Shown here: in pieces, positions 4,932 to 42,249 of the stretch
Numbering within the stretch: the first letter of the stretch is position 1
Layout: each line of letters starts with the position of its first letter
Assembly (NCBI GenBank): GCA_026645945.1
Contig: JAPKMO010000006.1
Coordinates: 1-64,000, forward strand
Length of the DNA stretch: 64,000 bases
Source: Anaerolineae bacterium
GTDB taxonomy: Bacteria > Chloroflexota > Anaerolineae > Aggregatilineales > Phototrophicaceae
Direction of reading: 5' to 3'
Position numbers and translations under genes: made by a program
The notes under the pieces: model-generated
Database searches by the model: none
What the model saw: the letters and a program-made list of their open reading frames with translations, nothing else
Told to the model about the DNA's origin: nothing

Positions 4932-5080
4932 AAAACAAACTTCTCGAAATGGCGATTACAGTATCCTCCTTGATTGTAAACTGGTGAAGGACGTAACAAT
5001 CCTTAAACCATTCCCAGGTAACAAAATCGAGAGATATTTAATTCCACTGCTGCTGGACAGGGCGTTTTCCCGCCTCAACA

Positions 5081-5109
5081 TTGCCAAACGGGTGACAATC
5101 GCGCATAAT
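5081..5109 (+). promoter_or_regulatory. Sigma70-type promoter for the TIR operon
   Basis: TTGCCA - 17 nt - CATAAT, ~36 bp upstream of the first TIR ATG at 5145. Confidence 0.5.
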
Positions 5110-5144
5110 GAGGGTAATGAAAGTTGGTTTACAGGAATCTCGAC

Positions 5145-5708
5145 ATGGCGACGACGGTGTTCATCAGTCATGCCGCCCAGGATAAACCGGTCGCGGAGAA
5201 GGTCTACCACGCGCTGAAGGGCGCCGGCATCAGCGCCTGGCTGGACAGCATGGACGCGCCGCCCGGCCAGAATTGGCGCGACGCGGTGGAGCAGGCCGTC
5301 GAAAAGGCTTCCTGCGGCGTTTTTCTGCTGTCGCCCGCTTCGATCAAGTCTCCCTCGGCGGCCAGCGAATACCGCCACTTCCTGGCGCACAACAAGCCGC
5401 TGGTGGTGGCCCGCGTGCGCGAGGTGGACAGCGACGACGTGCCTTCGCGCCTGCGCGATATACAGTGGGTTGACCTAACCGAGGACTTCGACCTCAACCT
5501 GCGCCGGCTGGTGGAGCTAATCCATACCGGCCAGCCGCGCGCCGAGGAGCAGGAACAGGATACCCAACCGGTCGAGATGGAGCCGGACGTGACGGTAACC
5601 CTGGAAGTGCAGGACAAGGCCGACACCGACAAAGTGATGGACATCATCAACCGGCTGAAGCGCATCGGCATCCGCGACATCAAGGTTAAGAATGGCGGCA
5701 AGCGGTAA
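5145..5708 (+). CDS. TIR-domain protein with a C-terminal small beta-alpha-beta-like module
   Basis: MATTVFISHAAQDKPVAEKVYHALKGAGISAWLDSMDAPPGQNW...SPSAASEYRHFL; C-terminal DVTVTLEVQDKADTDKVMDIINRLKRIGIRDIKV. Confidence 0.85.
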   Translation: MATTVFISHAAQDKPVAEKVYHALKGAGISAWLDSMDAPPGQNWRDAVEQAVEKASCGVFLLSPASIKSPSAASEYRHFLAHNKPLVVARVREVDSDDVPSRLRDIQWVDLTEDFDLNLRRLVELIHTGQPRAEEQEQDTQPVEMEPDVTVTLEVQDKADTDKVMDIINRLKRIGIRDIKVKNGGKR

Positions 5709-6312
5709 CGTTCAGGTCACACTGACGATTTCGCAAAACAACAAACGCGCCGCGCTGGACTTGCTTCGGAAGAACCTGAAGCTGTTTGGCGAGGTGCGGA
5801 TTTTTGATCCTGCCGCCCCGCCGTACCCCGATCTGAGCGTGTTCATCAGCTACCGGCGCGACGACAGTGAGGATGTATGCGGGCGCATCTACGACCGACT
5901 GCAAGCGGCCTTCGGCCAGGAAAGCATCTTCCGCGACCTGGAAAGTATGCCGGACGCCCAGGACTTCCGCGAGGTGTTAAAACGCGAGGTGGCTGCCTGC
6001 GACCTGCTGCTGGTCATCATGGGCAAAAGCTGGGACAGCACCCGCTACCTCCGCAGCCTGAACAACCTTAAAAAAGACGATTACGTGCGGCTGGAGATCG
6101 AAACCGCTTTCGAGGCCAATATCCCGGTCATCCCCATCTGGGTGCAGCGGCGCGACCGGATGCCGGACGAAAACCGCCTGCCACCTTCGCTGCGCCCGCT
6201 GGTTTACCGCACCGGGCGGCCTGTCCGCCCTGACCCCGACTTCCACAAAGACATGGACGACGTGATCCGGCGCATCAAAGAGGCGCTCAATCTCAGCGAC
6301 CCGGCGTTTTAA
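5692..6312 (+). CDS. TIR-domain protein with an N-terminal small beta-alpha-beta-like module
   Basis: VFISYRRDDSEDVCGRIYDRLQAAFGQESIFRDLESMPDAQDFREVL...DDYVRLEIETAFEANIPVIPIWV; N-terminal NVQVTLTISQNNKRAALDLLRKNLKLFGEVRIFD. Overlaps the upstream TIR gene by 17 nt. Confidence 0.85.
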   Translation: MAASGNVQVTLTISQNNKRAALDLLRKNLKLFGEVRIFDPAAPPYPDLSVFISYRRDDSEDVCGRIYDRLQAAFGQESIFRDLESMPDAQDFREVLKREVAACDLLLVIMGKSWDSTRYLRSLNNLKKDDYVRLEIETAFEANIPVIPIWVQRRDRMPDENRLPPSLRPLVYRTGRPVRPDPDFHKDMDDVIRRIKEALNLSDPAF

Positions 6313-6354: not shown

Positions 6355-6384
6355 CCCCGCCCTCGCGGCGGGGTGTTTTGTGTT
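6355..6384 (+). terminator. Candidate Rho-independent terminator after the TIR pair
   Basis: CCCCGCC CTCGC GGCGGGG followed by TGTTTTGTGTT. Confidence 0.55.
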
Positions 6385-6410: not shown

Positions 6411-6929
6411 ATGACAGAGGCTCAGGCCGAACAGGCCATGCAGTGGATGTACGGGGACATCAGCGCCCGCGACGAACTGACCGACGAAGAAGCCGAAGTG
6501 CTGCTGGCCTGGGGCGAAACGCAGATCGCCGGGCTGGCGGCGCTCGACCTGGACGACGCGGCGTTCGAGGCGGCTTATGAGCAGCTTCGCAAGCTGCTGA
6601 CGCGCATCAACCGCTTTACCGCACGGCGCGCCGATCTGCCGCCGGAGGAGGCGGCCGCTGCGCTGGACAAAATCGCCGAATCGGCGGAGGCGCTGGCGGC
6701 CTATCACCCCCGCGCCCAGGCGTTTGCCCCCCCCGCTTTCGACCTGGCTGCGGACCTGAATTTTATCGGGACTATCCGGGCGCTGACGGAGCAGATCGCG
6801 CCCGCCATCACAGGAGCAGTAAATGACCAAACGAACCAGCCGAGAGACGAAGCAGGCCGCCAACCCGGACAAGAAGGACAATCCCAAACTGAGCAAGACG
6901 AGCATCCGACCGGAGACGAGCGCATCTAA
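6411..6929 (+). CDS. Hypothetical protein overlapping the PLD gene
   Basis: ATG preceded by strong RBS AAAGGAGGCGGTG; long ORF; C-terminus overlaps the downstream PLD ORF. Confidence 0.6.
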   Translation: MTEAQAEQAMQWMYGDISARDELTDEEAEVLLAWGETQIAGLAALDLDDAAFEAAYEQLRKLLTRINRFTARRADLPPEEAAAALDKIAESAEALAAYHPRAQAFAPPAFDLAADLNFIGTIRALTEQIAPAITGAVNDQTNQPRDEAGRQPGQEGQSQTEQDEHPTGDERI

Positions 6930-8121
6930 AGGGCCGCTTTCGGCCATCGTCACCTTGCTAACGGCGCTGGTGGTGGTGATCGCCATCGCCATCAGCAGCT
7001 TCACCGGCGTGGATGTCCTCGACCTGCTCGGAATAAGCACCGCCGCGCCCACCCCGACGGCCTTCGTCACCGAAGTGGCGAACGTGCCGGGAAACGTAAC
7101 CACCATCAACATTCCGCAGGGCTTTGGGGCGCAGAAAGGCTTCTGGCAGGTGTATTTCGCCGCGCCCACCGGCAGCCGCGACCCTTCGACCTATGTCGGC
7201 GGCATCGAAATCCAGTTGATCGCGGCCATCAATGAGCTTAAACGCGGGGATACGCTGGACATCGCGGCCTTCGAGTTCAACCTGCCGGCGCTCACCCAGG
7301 CGGTGCTGGACGCCAAAGCGCGCGGCGTGGTCATCCGCATGGTGACGGACACGCAGCACGGCCTGGAAGACGATAACGCCACCGTGCCGCAGTTGGTGGC
7401 GGCGGGCATCCCGGTGGTGGGCGACCAGCGCAGCGCCTTCATGCACAACAAGTTTATGATTATCAACAAACACACCGTCTGGACGGGATCGTGGAACTAC
7501 ACCATCAACGACACCTACCGCAACAACAACAACGCCATCGCCATCCGGTCGCAGCGCCTGGTGCAGAACTACCAGGCGGAATTTAACGAAATGTTCGAGC
7601 AGGGGCTGTTCGGGCCGCGCTCTCCGGTCAACACGCCTAACCCGCGTTTTACCCAGGACGGCGTGCCGATTCAGGTCTACTTTTCGCCGGAGGACAAAGT
7701 GCTGGAGCCGCTGATCGCCGCCCTGAACGGCGCGCGGCGCTCGGTGCATTTTATGACCTTTTCGTTTACCGACTTCGACGTGGCCTCGGCGCTGCTCAAC
7801 CGGGCGGCGGCGGGGGTGACGGTGCGCGGCATCTTCGAGACGGTGGGCAGCCAGACCACCGCCAGCGAGCTGCGGACGCTGTTCTGCGCCGGGCTGGACG
7901 CGCGGCAGGATGGCAACCCGTTTGTGCTGCACCATAAGGTGTTCATCGTGGACGAAACCACCGTGATTACCGGGTCGTTCAACATTTCGTCCAACGCCAC
8001 CAACAGCAACGACGAAAACCTGCTCATCATCCAGGATGCCGACGTAGGCGCACTTTTTATGCAGGAGTTCAACCGGCGCTGGGCCGAAGCGCGCACGCCG
8101 ACCGCCATCACCTGCCAGTAG
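6823..8121 (+). CDS. Membrane-anchored phospholipase D-like protein with two HKD motifs
   Basis: N-terminal TM segment (AIVTLLTALVVVIAIAISSF); HKD motifs MHNKFMIINKHTVWTGSWN and LHHKVFIVDETTVITGSFN. Confidence 0.9.
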   Translation: MTKRTSRETKQAANPDKKDNPKLSKTSIRPETSASKGPLSAIVTLLTALVVVIAIAISSFTGVDVLDLLGISTAAPTPTAFVTEVANVPGNVTTINIPQGFGAQKGFWQVYFAAPTGSRDPSTYVGGIEIQLIAAINELKRGDTLDIAAFEFNLPALTQAVLDAKARGVVIRMVTDTQHGLEDDNATVPQLVAAGIPVVGDQRSAFMHNKFMIINKHTVWTGSWNYTINDTYRNNNNAIAIRSQRLVQNYQAEFNEMFEQGLFGPRSPVNTPNPRFTQDGVPIQVYFSPEDKVLEPLIAALNGARRSVHFMTFSFTDFDVASALLNRAAAGVTVRGIFETVGSQTTASELRTLFCAGLDARQDGNPFVLHHKVFIVDETTVITGSFNISSNATNSNDENLLIIQDADVGALFMQEFNRRWAEARTPTAITCQ

Positions 8122-8251: not shown

Positions 8252-10930
8252 ATGCCCTTTATCGAAGCGCCGACCAGTTTTTACCTCGGACGCCGCTACG
8301 ACCCGGCGACGCGCCACCTGTCGAGCGACGTAATTTATTACGACGCGCGCGACCTGACGACCCACGCCGTCGTGGTGGGCATGACCGGCAGCGGCAAAAC
8401 CGGCCTGTGTATCACCCTGCTGGAAGAAGCCGTCCTGGACAACATCCCGGCCATCATCATTGACCCGAAAGGCGACATCACCAACCTGCTGCTGACCTTC
8501 CCCGACCTGCGCCCGGAGGATTTTCAGCCCTGGGTGAACGCCGACGACGCGCGGCGGGCCGGCCTGGACCTGCCGGCCTATGCCGCCGACGTGGCGCAGC
8601 GCTGGCGGGATGGCCTGACAAGCTGGGGCATCGTGCCGGACCGGCTGCGCTGGTTGAAGGGCATCGCCCGCTACAGCATTTACACGCCGGGGTCGGACGC
8701 GGGGCTGCCGATCAGCATCCTGGCCTCGCTGGCCGCCCCGCGCGAGGGCTGGCAGGGCAACGAGGAGTTCAACCGAGAAAAAATCAACGGCATCGTCACG
8801 GCGCTGCTGGCGCTCATCGGCATGGACGCGCAGCCGGTGCGCGACAAGGAACACGTCCTGATCGCCAACATCTTTGAATACGCCTGGATGCGCGGTTTAA
8901 GCCTGACGCTGGAAGATATCATCCTCCAGGTGCAAAAACCGCCCTTCACCAAACTGGGCGTGCTGCCGGTGGACGAGTATATGTCGGAGCGGGCGCGGGT
9001 GAAGCTGGCGATGAGCCTGAACAACATCATCGCCGCGCCGTCCTTCCAGTCGTGGATTCGCGGCGAGCCGCTTAACATTCAAAACCTGCTCTACCAGCCG
9101 GATGGCCGCCCGCACGTGTCGGTGTTTTATCTGGCGCACCTCAACGAAGCCGAGCGCCAGTTCATCATCACCCTGCTGCTGGAAAATGTTTTAAGCTGGA
9201 TGCGCGGCCTGAGCGGCACGACCAGCCTGCGGGCGCTGCTGTACATTGACGAGATGTTCGGCTACTTCCCGCCTTACCCGATGAACCCACCCACTAAAGA
9301 GCCGATTTTGCGGCTGCTCAAACAGGCGCGCGCTTTCGGCCTGGGTTTGATCCTGGCGACCCAGAACCCCGGCGACCTGGACTATAAGGGCCTGTCCAAC
9401 GCCGGGACGTGGTTCATCGGGCGGCTGCAATCGGAAAACGACCGCAACCGGGTGATGACCGGGCTGGAATCAATGGCGAGCGTTTCCAACAATATGAATT
9501 TGAAGGACGTGGAACGGCTGGTGGCGGACATCGAGCCGCGCGTGTTCCTGATGCACAACATCCACGATACCGGCGGGCCGGTGCTGGTGCATACCCGCTG
9601 GGCGATGAGCTACCTGCGCGGGCCGCTGACACGCCAGCAGATTCAACTGTTGATGGCCGGCCAGAAGCAGGAACTTCTGGCGAAAATCGGCGCGGCATCC
9701 GGTGGATATGGCGGACAGGGTTTGCCGCTGCCGCCCGCCCCGCCGGAAACGGGCGCGTTCGCTGCCGCCGGCGCACCGCCCAATCCCCCCGGCTTTGATC
9801 TGCCGCTGCCGCCCATGCCGCCGGAGACGGGCGGTTTAACGCCCGCGCCAGGGTATACGCAGCCAACCGCCGCTTACACGCAGCCGCCGTCCGGCACGCA
9901 GGTCACGCGCAGCGCCGGGCTGCCAGCGGGTTATTCGGCCAACCCGCCGGCGGTGGCGTCCAGCATCGCGCAGTTTTTCATCCCAGCGGCGCTGACGGCC
10001 CAGCAGGCCTTGGCCGCCTGGGAACAGCAGACGCGCTTCGCGGTGCAAAGCCTGGGCGGCGGCATGACGGCCTACCTGCCGGTGCTGCTGGCGCAGGCGG
10101 TGGTGCGGTATCAGGACCGCAAAACGCAGCTTTACACGGCGCGCACCTTCGCCTACAGCGTGCCGAACCTGCAAAAAGCCGGGCTGATTCATTGGGAGGA
10201 ATATCAGATCAACCCGCTGGATGCGCGGCGGCTGTCCAGCGCGCCGCTGACGGAGGCCATCTACGGCGATCTGCCGCCCGGCTTAACCGACAGCCGCCGG
10301 CTGACGGCGCTGAGAACCGAACTGACCGATATGCTGTACAACACCGCCGCGCTGAAGGTTCCCTTCAACCCGACGCTGGGCGTTTACGGCAGCCCGGAAA
10401 GCGATTTCAGCGAGTTCCGGGCGCAGGCGCAGCAGGTGGCGCGGGAGCGGCGCGACCAGGAAATTGACCAGCTCGCCGCCAAATACGAAAAAATCATGGA
10501 TAAGCTGGAGGAACAATACGAGCGTAAATCCCGCGAGTTGAGCGCGGAGAAAAAAGAACTGGCCGACCGCCGCCGCGAAGAACTGTTCACGCGCGGGGAA
10601 GCGGTGTTAAGCCTGCTGCGCGGGCGCACCACCTATACCCTGTCCCGCACCAGCCGCGTTCACCGGATGCGCCGCCAGACCCAGGAAGACCTGCGCGAAA
10701 GCGAAGAAGTGCTGGCGCGCATCGAAGATCAGATCGCCGACCAGGAGCAGAAGTTTGAGGCGGAAATCCAGGCCATCAACGAACGCTGGGCGAAAACCGC
10801 CGTCGAGGTGCAGGAGTACATCATCACCCCCTACAAAAAGGATATTCAGGTGGAACTGTTCGGCATCGGCTGGCTGCCGCATTATTACGTGCAGGTCAAC
10901 GGCCAGCCGCTGCTGCTGCCAGGGCTGTAG
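8252..10930 (+). CDS. HerA/FtsK-like ATPase with Pro-rich linker and coiled-coil C-terminal region
   Basis: Walker A VVGMTGSGKTGL; Walker B ALLYIDEMFGYFPP; ATQNPGDLDYKGLSNAGTWFIGRL HerA-type motif; PPAPPETG-rich linker; charged coiled coil. Confidence 0.85.
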   Translation: MPFIEAPTSFYLGRRYDPATRHLSSDVIYYDARDLTTHAVVVGMTGSGKTGLCITLLEEAVLDNIPAIIIDPKGDITNLLLTFPDLRPEDFQPWVNADDARRAGLDLPAYAADVAQRWRDGLTSWGIVPDRLRWLKGIARYSIYTPGSDAGLPISILASLAAPREGWQGNEEFNREKINGIVTALLALIGMDAQPVRDKEHVLIANIFEYAWMRGLSLTLEDIILQVQKPPFTKLGVLPVDEYMSERARVKLAMSLNNIIAAPSFQSWIRGEPLNIQNLLYQPDGRPHVSVFYLAHLNEAERQFIITLLLENVLSWMRGLSGTTSLRALLYIDEMFGYFPPYPMNPPTKEPILRLLKQARAFGLGLILATQNPGDLDYKGLSNAGTWFIGRLQSENDRNRVMTGLESMASVSNNMNLKDVERLVADIEPRVFLMHNIHDTGGPVLVHTRWAMSYLRGPLTRQQIQLLMAGQKQELLAKIGAASGGYGGQGLPLPPAPPETGAFAAAGAPPNPPGFDLPLPPMPPETGGLTPAPGYTQPTAAYTQPPSGTQVTRSAGLPAGYSANPPAVASSIAQFFIPAALTAQQALAAWEQQTRFAVQSLGGGMTAYLPVLLAQAVVRYQDRKTQLYTARTFAYSVPNLQKAGLIHWEEYQINPLDARRLSSAPLTEAIYGDLPPGLTDSRRLTALRTELTDMLYNTAALKVPFNPTLGVYGSPESDFSEFRAQAQQVARERRDQEIDQLAAKYEKIMDKLEEQYERKSRELSAEKKELADRRREELFTRGEAVLSLLRGRTTYTLSRTSRVHRMRRQTQEDLRESEEVLARIEDQIADQEQKFEAEIQAINERWAKTAVEVQEYIITPYKKDIQVELFGIGWLPHYYVQVNGQPLLLPGL

Positions 10931-40999: not shown

Positions 41000-42133
41000 C
41001 TACTGCGCCGCCAGGCCGAAGCGCAGCCGTTCGTCCGGTGTCAGCGCCCGGATGAGGCAGCAGTCGCGGGCGAAGGCGACCAGCGCGTCCGGCTGCTGCC
41101 AGGCGAACCACTCCTGCACGATTCCACCACCGCTGACCAGCAGTAAAGCATCCCCGCCGGGCGACCAGTCGGCGCTCAGGAAGCCGATGTCCGGGCTGGT
41201 GATGCTCACCAGTTCGTTCCCGGTACGGACATCCCAGATGCGGGCGGTGCTGTCGGCACTGGCCGTGACGAGCCGCTGTCCATCCGGCGACCAGTCCAGG
41301 TTAATCACCAGGTCATCAAGCGCGCCGGTGACAGCCAGCAGGTCGCCACTGTAAGCATCCCACACGGCGGCGCGGTCGCCGATTTCCTGGCTCGTCACGC
41401 TGGCGGCGATTTTGCTGCCGTCTGGCGACCAGGCCAGCGCCAGGCCGATCAGGGTATCGTCGGATATAGTAAGCAGGGTTTCGCCCAGATTGGCATCGAG
41501 GATCACGATCTCTTGGGCGGGTGCTGCCGCGATCCGCCGTCCGTCGGGTGAATAACGCGCGTTAAAGATCGGGGAATCAGGGCTTTCGTAACGCGCCAGT
41601 TCCACGCCAGTGCGGGTATCCCACAATCGCGCGGTGAAATCGGCGCTGGCTGTGAGCGCGCGCGTGCCATCCGGCGAAAATGTGGCGTTAAAAACCATAT
41701 CCGTATGCCCATCGAACAGTTGCTGCAGGTGGCTGTTCAGCACGGCCAGCCCCAGCGCGCGTTCCGCCTGCCAGGTGGGCGGGAAGTTGGCGAGCGCCTC
41801 CACGCCCAGGATGACAGGGAGTTCCTGCTGGCTGCCGCTGAGTTCAAGCTGCGACTGCGCCGCCAGCGACAGCGACAGCGACCGTTTGCCCAGCAAGACG
41901 GCGGTCGCTTCGGCGGCCTGGGCGGCGGCCGAACGCACCGAGTCCGGGCTGATGATAAACAGGAAGTTGTCGGCGGCTTCGATGCCGGCGCAAATCTCTT
42001 GCCACCAGTCGGCGGTCAGCGGGATATCCTCCCAGTCAATCCAGATGTCCCGCCCCTGCTCGGTCAGCGCCTGGTGCAGCCGCCGCACGAAATCCGCATC
42101 TTTACGCGAATACGAGATAAACACGTCCGCCAT
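41000..42133 (-). CDS. TIR domain (apparently truncated) fused to WD40 repeats
   Basis: MADVFISYSRKDADFVRRLHQALTEQGRDIWIDWEDIPLTADWWQEICAGIEAADNFLFIISPDSV then AAQSQLELSGSQQELPVILGVEAL and WD40 units. Confidence 0.8.
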   Translation of the reverse strand: MADVFISYSRKDADFVRRLHQALTEQGRDIWIDWEDIPLTADWWQEICAGIEAADNFLFIISPDSVRSAAAQAAEATAVLLGKRSLSLSLAAQSQLELSGSQQELPVILGVEALANFPPTWQAERALGLAVLNSHLQQLFDGHTDMVFNATFSPDGTRALTASADFTARLWDTRTGVELARYESPDSPIFNARYSPDGRRIAAAPAQEIVILDANLGETLLTISDDTLIGLALAWSPDGSKIAASVTSQEIGDRAAVWDAYSGDLLAVTGALDDLVINLDWSPDGQRLVTASADSTARIWDVRTGNELVSITSPDIGFLSADWSPGGDALLLVSGGGIVQEWFAWQQPDALVAFARDCCLIRALTPDERLRFGLAAQ

Positions 42134-42153
42134 ACATCCCTCCACCCGTGCAT

Positions 42154-42249
42154 TTAAGAGTTTATCCGTAAACCCACCAGACAGTGGGCTTAAGCCCACT
42201 GTTCTGCTATCAGATCAATCAGATCAATCGGTTTACGGATAGATACTTA
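42154..42249 (+). repeat. Nested-palindrome interspersed element, copy D
   Basis: Same consensus with internal 9-bp duplication (ATCAGATCAATCAGATCA). Confidence 0.9.

What the first reader, a model, noticed from the sequence alone, without database searches (positions are those of the whole stretch)
5145..6312. Two overlapping TIR genes sharing a small beta-alpha-beta-like module
The C-terminus of TIR-1 (VTVTLEVQDKADTDKVMDIINRLKRIGIRDIKV) and N-terminus of TIR-2 (VQVTLTISQNNKRAALDLLRKNLKLFGEVRIFD) align as similar ~33-aa units, placed at opposite ends of the two proteins. Genes overlap by 17 nt, have their own -35/-10 (TTGCCA-17-CATAAT) and a downstream terminator-like hairpin. Shared small death-like/adaptor domains (cf. 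effector-associated domains in conflict systems) usually mediate homotypic assembly, suggesting a two-component TIR complex that co-oligomerises. Both retain a Glu in the expected NADase region.
Basis: partly seen in the sequence, partly recalled or inferred. Interest (0 to 1): 0.7.

Follow-up and report, generated by a model that had tools for sequence, protein, structure and literature searches.

The report
Two TIR proteins sharing split domain
Two small, overlapping bacterial genes each encode a probable NAD-cleaving immune (TIR) domain plus half of one small fold, so the two proteins probably have to snap together into one unit; this would be a new way of wiring a two-part suicide or defence switch.

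Summary
The two genes are real. TIR-1 (5145-5708) and TIR-2 (5692-6312) overlap by 17 nt and are both TIR_2 proteins with the catalytic-position Glu. The claimed sequence similarity of the two 33-aa modules is not significant: 617 of 5000 shuffles score as well, and hhalign gives 16% probability. A better reading is that they are complementary halves of one domain. The TIR-1 tail is beta-alpha-beta (first half) and the TIR-2 head is beta-alpha-beta (second half), and the gene junction falls in the beta2-beta3 turn. AlphaFold2 of a single-chain surrogate gives beta-alpha-beta-beta-alpha-beta (pLDDT about 70-81), and Foldseek matches it to ACT, PII and ribosomal S6 (ferredoxin-like). The same pair, split at the same place and in the same frame, recurs at 11 loci in 10 of 98 family genomes, down to about 30-40% identity. 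No orphan tail, orphan head or single-chain form was found. The likely meaning is a heterodimeric TIR pair held by a split, interdigitated ferredoxin-like domain, with TIR-2 the likelier enzyme. The defence role is inferred from TIR biology. The "homotypic death-like adaptor" reading is not supported; a two-component TIR complex is.

The parts
5081..5109 (+). sigma-70-like promoter TTGCCA-17-CATAAT, inside the stretch shared with the relative that has unrelated flanks
   Evidence: shared stretch begins at 5070
5145..5708 (+). TIR-1 gene, 187 aa: TIR domain aa 1-128, disordered linker 132-147, half-domain tail 148-187
   Evidence: TIR_2; AF2
5367..5369 (+). codon of TIR-1 Glu75, catalytic position; E in 9 of 10 homologues (Q in L070); the WxxxE Trp is replaced by Ser here
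5586..5705 (+). TIR-1 C-terminal half-domain: beta1 (aa 149-155), alpha1 (161-174), beta2 (178-183)
   Evidence: conserved at 11 loci
5682..5685 (+). Shine-Dalgarno-like AAGG 6 nt before the TIR-2 start, inside the codons of beta2
5692..5708 (+). 17-nt gene overlap (ATGGCGGCAAGCGGTAA); encodes the beta2-beta3 turn in both frames; same frame relation in all 11 pairs
5692..6312 (+). TIR-2 gene, 206 aa: half-domain head aa 6-39, TIR domain about aa 48-202
5707..5808 (+). TIR-2 N-terminal half-domain: beta3 (aa 7-13), alpha2 (15-27), beta4 (32-38)
   Evidence: found by profile only at the pair loci
6094..6096 (+). codon of TIR-2 Glu135, catalytic position, invariant in 9 of 9; aromatic residue at E-4 in all (YxxxE/FxxxE)
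6355..6373 (+). terminator-like hairpin with T tail; lies outside the stretch shared with L017

Best explanation
This is a stand-alone two-gene TIR system. The C-terminal beta-alpha-beta of TIR-1 and the N-terminal beta-alpha-beta of TIR-2 are the two halves of a single ferredoxin-like (ACT/PII/RRM-type) domain cut at its beta2-beta3 turn by the gene junction. In that fold the strands of the two halves alternate (sheet order 4-1-3-2), so neither half is complete alone and the partners should dock as a 1:1 heterodimer. The overlap couples their translation. The dock sits at the end of a flexible linker from TIR-1 and directly before the TIR of TIR-2, so it brings two different TIR domains together. 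TIR NADases work as assemblies, so docking or undocking, or further stacking of heterodimers, is the likely on-switch for NAD+ cleavage or a cyclic-ADPR signal, probably by TIR-2, leading to growth arrest or phage defence. Shown here: genes, conservation, split position, predicted fold. Inferred: heterodimer, activation and role.
For: Tail and head co-occur: a tail profile finds 11 loci at E<=4e-15 in 98 family genomes, the next best match being 0.011; all 11 lie directly before a TIR-2 gene; a head profile finds 10 of these and no orphan. The split position and the +1 frame relation are the same in all 11 pairs, with overlaps of 8-20 nt. The single-chain surrogate folds as E8-14 H20-33 E37-42 E48-54 H56-68 E73-79 with block pLDDT about 70-81 and matches ACT, PII and S6 structures, best E 8e-4, TMq about 0.6. 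In TIR-1 alone the tail is a separate unit behind a disordered linker. Both halves are under purifying selection (dN/dS 0.19 and 0.23 against L019), while the linker is nearly unconserved against L020. L017 shares 5070-6312 at 86% with otherwise unrelated near flanks. TIR-1 and TIR-2 identity matrices correlate at r=0.87, 0 of 5000 permutations.
Against: No single-chain homologue was found to prove that the halves were ever one domain. In one pair (L077) the TIR-2 head is not recognisable by profile. Half-ferredoxin units can also homodimerise. No sensor or effector gene is conserved next to the pair, so nothing ties it directly to defence.
Confidence: 0.62

Rival explanations
1. Two separate beta-alpha-beta modules that each self-associate (tail with tail, head with head), so the two TIR proteins form homo-oligomers or co-oligomerise in the homotypic manner the first reader proposed.
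For: The tail is a beta-alpha-beta unit outside the TIR fold and the head is predicted the same. Pseudo-twofold symmetry of ferredoxin-like folds makes half-half homodimers possible (general knowledge).
Against: The two modules are not detectably similar. They always sit at the two sides of the gene junction and are never found in any other arrangement or alone.
Confidence: 0.2
2. The pair is one protein, TIR-1 to TIR-2, made by a programmed +1 frameshift at the overlap, with the two-gene reading only part of the output.
For: The frame relation is the same in all 11 pairs. A +1 shift at the TIR-1 stop joins the two halves without loss.
Against: No slippery motif is shared at the junction (CGG TAA, TCT TAA, AGA TAA, GAC TGA, GAT TGA and others). 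TIR-2 keeps its own start codon in all 11 pairs, with an AAGG or GAGG upstream in most. The frame could simply be inherited.
Confidence: 0.07
3. An ordinary pair of tandem TIR genes from a lineage rich in TIR proteins, whose terminal extensions are independent small appendages with no joint function.
For: The host genome has 26 TIR matches, and other tandem TIR genes exist in the family (L076, L078).
Against: The other tandem TIRs lack the tail and head. Conservation, strict pairing, matched divergence and purifying selection on both extensions argue for joint function.
Confidence: 0.11

Closest known systems
SPARTA (TIR-APAZ / short prokaryotic Argonaute)
   Same: A TIR protein and a partner from the same operon complete one functional unit that is a single protein elsewhere: APAZ is homologous to the N domain of long pAgo (PMC10474274). 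TIR activity depends on assembly.
   Different: There the split unit is an Argonaute that senses nucleic acid and only one partner has a TIR. Here both partners are TIRs and the split unit is a ~75-aa ferredoxin-like domain.
Thoeris (ThsB TIR with ThsA effector) and TIR-only systems such as SpbK
   Same: Small TIR proteins with the catalytic Glu; weak matches to ThsB and ThcB4 models over the TIR region only.
   Different: No ThsA-like effector is conserved beside the pair. There are two TIR proteins and a split docking domain.
Bacterial TRADD-N and effector-associated (EAD) adaptor domains
   Same: [quoted passage not shown] Joined, this domain would lie between two TIRs.
   Different: No profile match. 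The defining small-Ser motif at the beta2-beta3 turn is absent, and that turn is where the chain is cut here. EADs work as duplicated homotypic copies (PMC7159879).
ACT / PII / ribosomal S6 ferredoxin-like domains
   Same: Best structural matches of the joined domain.
   Different: No sequence relationship found; single-chain in the structures matched; no TIR link found in the material searched.

Membership tests
TIR domain proteins (Pfam TIR_2) | Profile match above the curated cut-off | tested here: met
   TIR-1 102.8 bits, TIR-2 40.3 bits, cut-off 28; TIR-1 fold matches AbTir 7uxu TMt 0.82
TIR NADases | Catalytic Glu of the C-helix WxxxE motif (PMC11374754) | tested here: met
   E75 in 9 of 10 TIR-1, E135 in 9 of 9 TIR-2
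TIR NADases | Aromatic residue four before the Glu | tested here: inconclusive
   TIR-2: Y or F in 9 of 9. TIR-1: S in the window, mixed S/W/F/Y/E in relatives. W is required in AbTir but not in TcpC
TIR NADases | NAD+ cleavage | not testable with these tools
   needs an enzyme assay
Bacterial TRADD-N domain | Conserved small-Ser (uS) motif in the beta2-beta3 turn (PMC8195603) | tested here: not met
   turn residues vary (SGN, GGD, NGK, TKP, QDK, TDN), no conserved Ser
Bacterial TRADD-N domain | Profile match | tested here: not met
   no match of the joined halves to any TRADD-N model; PF13820 finds nothing over cut-off in 98 family genomes
Ferredoxin-like (RRM/ACT-type) fold | beta-alpha-beta-beta-alpha-beta order | tested here: met
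   single-chain surrogate model only
EAD homotypic adaptor | Two similar copies of one domain in neighbouring genes | tested here: not met
Thoeris | ThsA (SIR2/SLOG or other) effector gene beside ThsB | tested here: not met
   flanks of window, L016, L017, L023, L070 and L079, as far as read, carry unrelated genes that differ between most loci; L017 shares only the pair and its promoter plus a kinase-like fragment

The most novel reading that the evidence does not exclude
A split ACT/PII-like domain, assembled only when TIR-1 meets TIR-2, is itself the sensor: ligand or phage-protein binding at the composite domain orients two unlike TIRs into a composite NADase site, a two-subunit immune switch in which assembly of the sensor fold and activation are one event.
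Probability: 0.15. Interest if true: 0.78.

Novelty: new variant of a known kind. Interest (0 to 1): 0.56.

Why it matters
How stand-alone TIR proteins are kept off and then assembled is open for many bacterial TIRs. A pair in which assembly is built into a split fold gives a directly testable on-switch: co-express, break one strand, lose the complex. It would add a third wiring principle (split domain) beside homotypic adaptors and sensor fusion in bacterial TIR systems. It also shows that terminal appendages of neighbouring genes should be read jointly, since neither half is recognisable alone.

Tried and rejected
Tail and head as duplicates of one module: rejected by BLASTP, shuffles and hhalign. 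Pfam, NCBIfam and PDB sequence searches for the halves or the joined domain: only chance-level matches such as ExbD, SecD and de novo proteins. TRADD-N by PF13820: nothing over cut-off. Single-chain versions or orphans in 98 family, 396 class and 400 phylum genomes: none; the weak class hits are a shadow reading frame and an unrelated ATPase, and the two best borderline tail hits examined are unrelated. N-terminal extensions of other TIR-2-like proteins (L035, L085, L086, L087) are different domains. Viral contigs: only one distant TIR, without the head. Whole-chain surrogate alignment A5 put TIR-1 rows on TIR-2 columns, so it was not folded. Literature search for split-domain TIR pairs: no paper held all the terms.

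Full report
WHAT IS THERE. TIR-1 (5145-5708, ATG, 187 aa) and TIR-2 (5692-6312, ATG, 206 aa) are both above the Pfam TIR_2 cut-off. They overlap by 17 nt with TIR-2 in the +1 frame. A sigma-70-like promoter lies at 5081-5109 and a terminator-like hairpin at 6355-6373. Each count is close to chance for the region (1 against 0.5; 3 against 2.0), but the promoter lies inside the stretch shared with a relative whose flanks differ. The genome is a Chloroflexi-type MAG: the nearest named records, 98% and 90% identical in TIR-2, are 'Chloroflexi bacterium' isolates. It is rich in TIR proteins, with 26 matches.

THE CLAIMED SIMILARITY. The TIR-1 tail and TIR-2 head do not align better than chance. BLASTP finds nothing at E<=100. 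A Smith-Waterman score of 22 is matched by 617 of 5000 shuffles. Profile-profile probability is 16% or 9%.

CONSERVATION OF THE PAIR. Homologous pairs were found with TIR-2 at 98, 90, 68, 63, 46, 45, 45, 42 and 40% identity and TIR-1 down to 30%. In each the TIR-1 homologue ends in the same kind of tail (consensus VTLEV...DT.KV.DLI.RL..IGI.DIKVVN), and in all but L077 the next gene begins with the same kind of head. A tail-only profile over 98 genomes of the family finds 11 loci in 10 genomes at E<=4e-15; the next best match is 0.011. All 11 are followed directly by TIR-2. A head profile finds 10 of them and no orphan; the eleventh (L077) has a TIR-2 whose head has diverged beyond recognition. 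No match outside the family survived inspection in samples of 396 class and 400 phylum genomes. The stop and start positions differ (overlaps 8, 11, 14, 17, 20 nt), but the frame relation is the same in every pair. In L017 DNA similarity runs from 5070 to 6312, from just before the promoter to the last base of TIR-2, with different flanking genes; one further 229-nt piece resembles the upstream kinase gene. The identity matrices of the two proteins correlate at 0.87, reached by 0 of 5000 permutations.

ONE DOMAIN IN TWO HALVES. A single-chain surrogate was made by reading the four bases CGGT at 5703 as one Arg step, which joins the frames in the overlap. This is a computational device and not a claim that the cell does so. 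With an alignment in which tail rows and head rows are separate, AlphaFold2 gives strands and helices in the order E H E E H E with block pLDDT of about 70-81 over the domain. Foldseek's best PDB matches are aspartokinase ACT domains, LarC2, circularly permuted ribosomal S6 and PII: ferredoxin-like folds with TMq about 0.5-0.6. The gene junction is exactly the beta2-beta3 turn. In ferredoxin-like folds the sheet order is 4-1-3-2 (established knowledge). A strand of each half therefore lies between the two strands of the other, and neither half can complete a sheet alone. TIR-1 folded alone gives a TIR domain at pLDDT about 90 (aa 1-128), a disordered linker (132-147) and the tail as a separate beta-alpha-beta at 71-78, so the module is not part of the TIR fold. 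Tail and head are under purifying selection like the TIR domains, whereas the linker is 12% identical to L020. Caveats: shallow alignment, pTM 0.52, no scrambled control, no multimer run.

THE TIR DOMAINS ARE UNLIKE. Glu75 of TIR-1 and Glu135 of TIR-2 align with each other, and Glu135 with the SARM1 segment DWVHKE. Published work describes a C-helix WxxxE motif in which the Glu is needed in most bacterial TIRs and the Trp in AbTir, though not in TcpC (PMC11374754). TIR-2 keeps the Glu in 9 of 9 and an aromatic residue in the Trp position in 9 of 9 (Y or F). TIR-1 keeps the Glu in 9 of 10 (Q in L070), but the Trp position is Ser in the window and varies in relatives. Inference: TIR-2 is the likelier enzyme, and TIR-1 may be a weak enzyme or an assembly partner.

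EXPRESSION. TIR-2 has its own start codon in every pair (ATG, GTG or TTG), and AAGG or GAGG a short distance before it in most, lying inside the codons of beta2. Coupled translation at near-equal amounts is likely. No shared slippery sequence supports a frameshift product.

MECHANISM. Most likely the two proteins dock as a 1:1 heterodimer through the split domain, with TIR-1 on a flexible leash and TIR-2 fixed close to the dock. Assembly of TIR domains is needed for NADase activity in characterised systems, for example TIR tetramers in SPARTA (PMC10474274). The dock would therefore set which TIR faces which. What triggers it is unknown. Phage defence by NAD+ loss or a cADPR signal is inferred from TIR biology, not from any conserved neighbour.

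COMPARISON. SPARTA is the nearest analogue in principle: a TIR protein and an operon partner share a unit that is one protein elsewhere. Bacterial TRADD-N (RRM-like, often between two globular domains; PMC8195603) is the nearest in domain plan, but its defining Ser motif and profile are not met. EADs are homotypic duplicates (PMC7159879), which this is not. The literature search for split-domain TIR pairs returned nothing, within an open-access library only. I rate this a new variant of a known kind.

Noticed in passing
window 41000-42199 (-): Another TIR protein: N-terminal TIR fused to WD40-like repeats, 399 aa; not examined further.
   Followed up: no
window 8252-10930 (+): 892-aa HerA/VirB4-like ATPase with a C-terminal coiled coil, next to a protein with two PLD domains (6823-8121); weak matches to PADLOC mad8/HerA and DrmC models. 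Possibly its own conflict module; retained with the TIR pair in the 98% relative L016 but not within the stretch of L017 read.
   Followed up: no
L076, L078 (G039, G040): Tandem TIR genes of a different type, without tail or head, the second encoding a shorter TIR with what looks like a membrane segment.
   Followed up: no
L035, L085, L087: TIR-2-like proteins with a ~100-130-aa N-terminal domain unrelated to the head; possibly another adaptor domain of this lineage.
   Followed up: no
L077 1196-1822: TIR-2 homologue whose head is not recognised by profile although its TIR-1 partner keeps the tail; may be a replaced or strongly diverged half-domain.
   Followed up: partly
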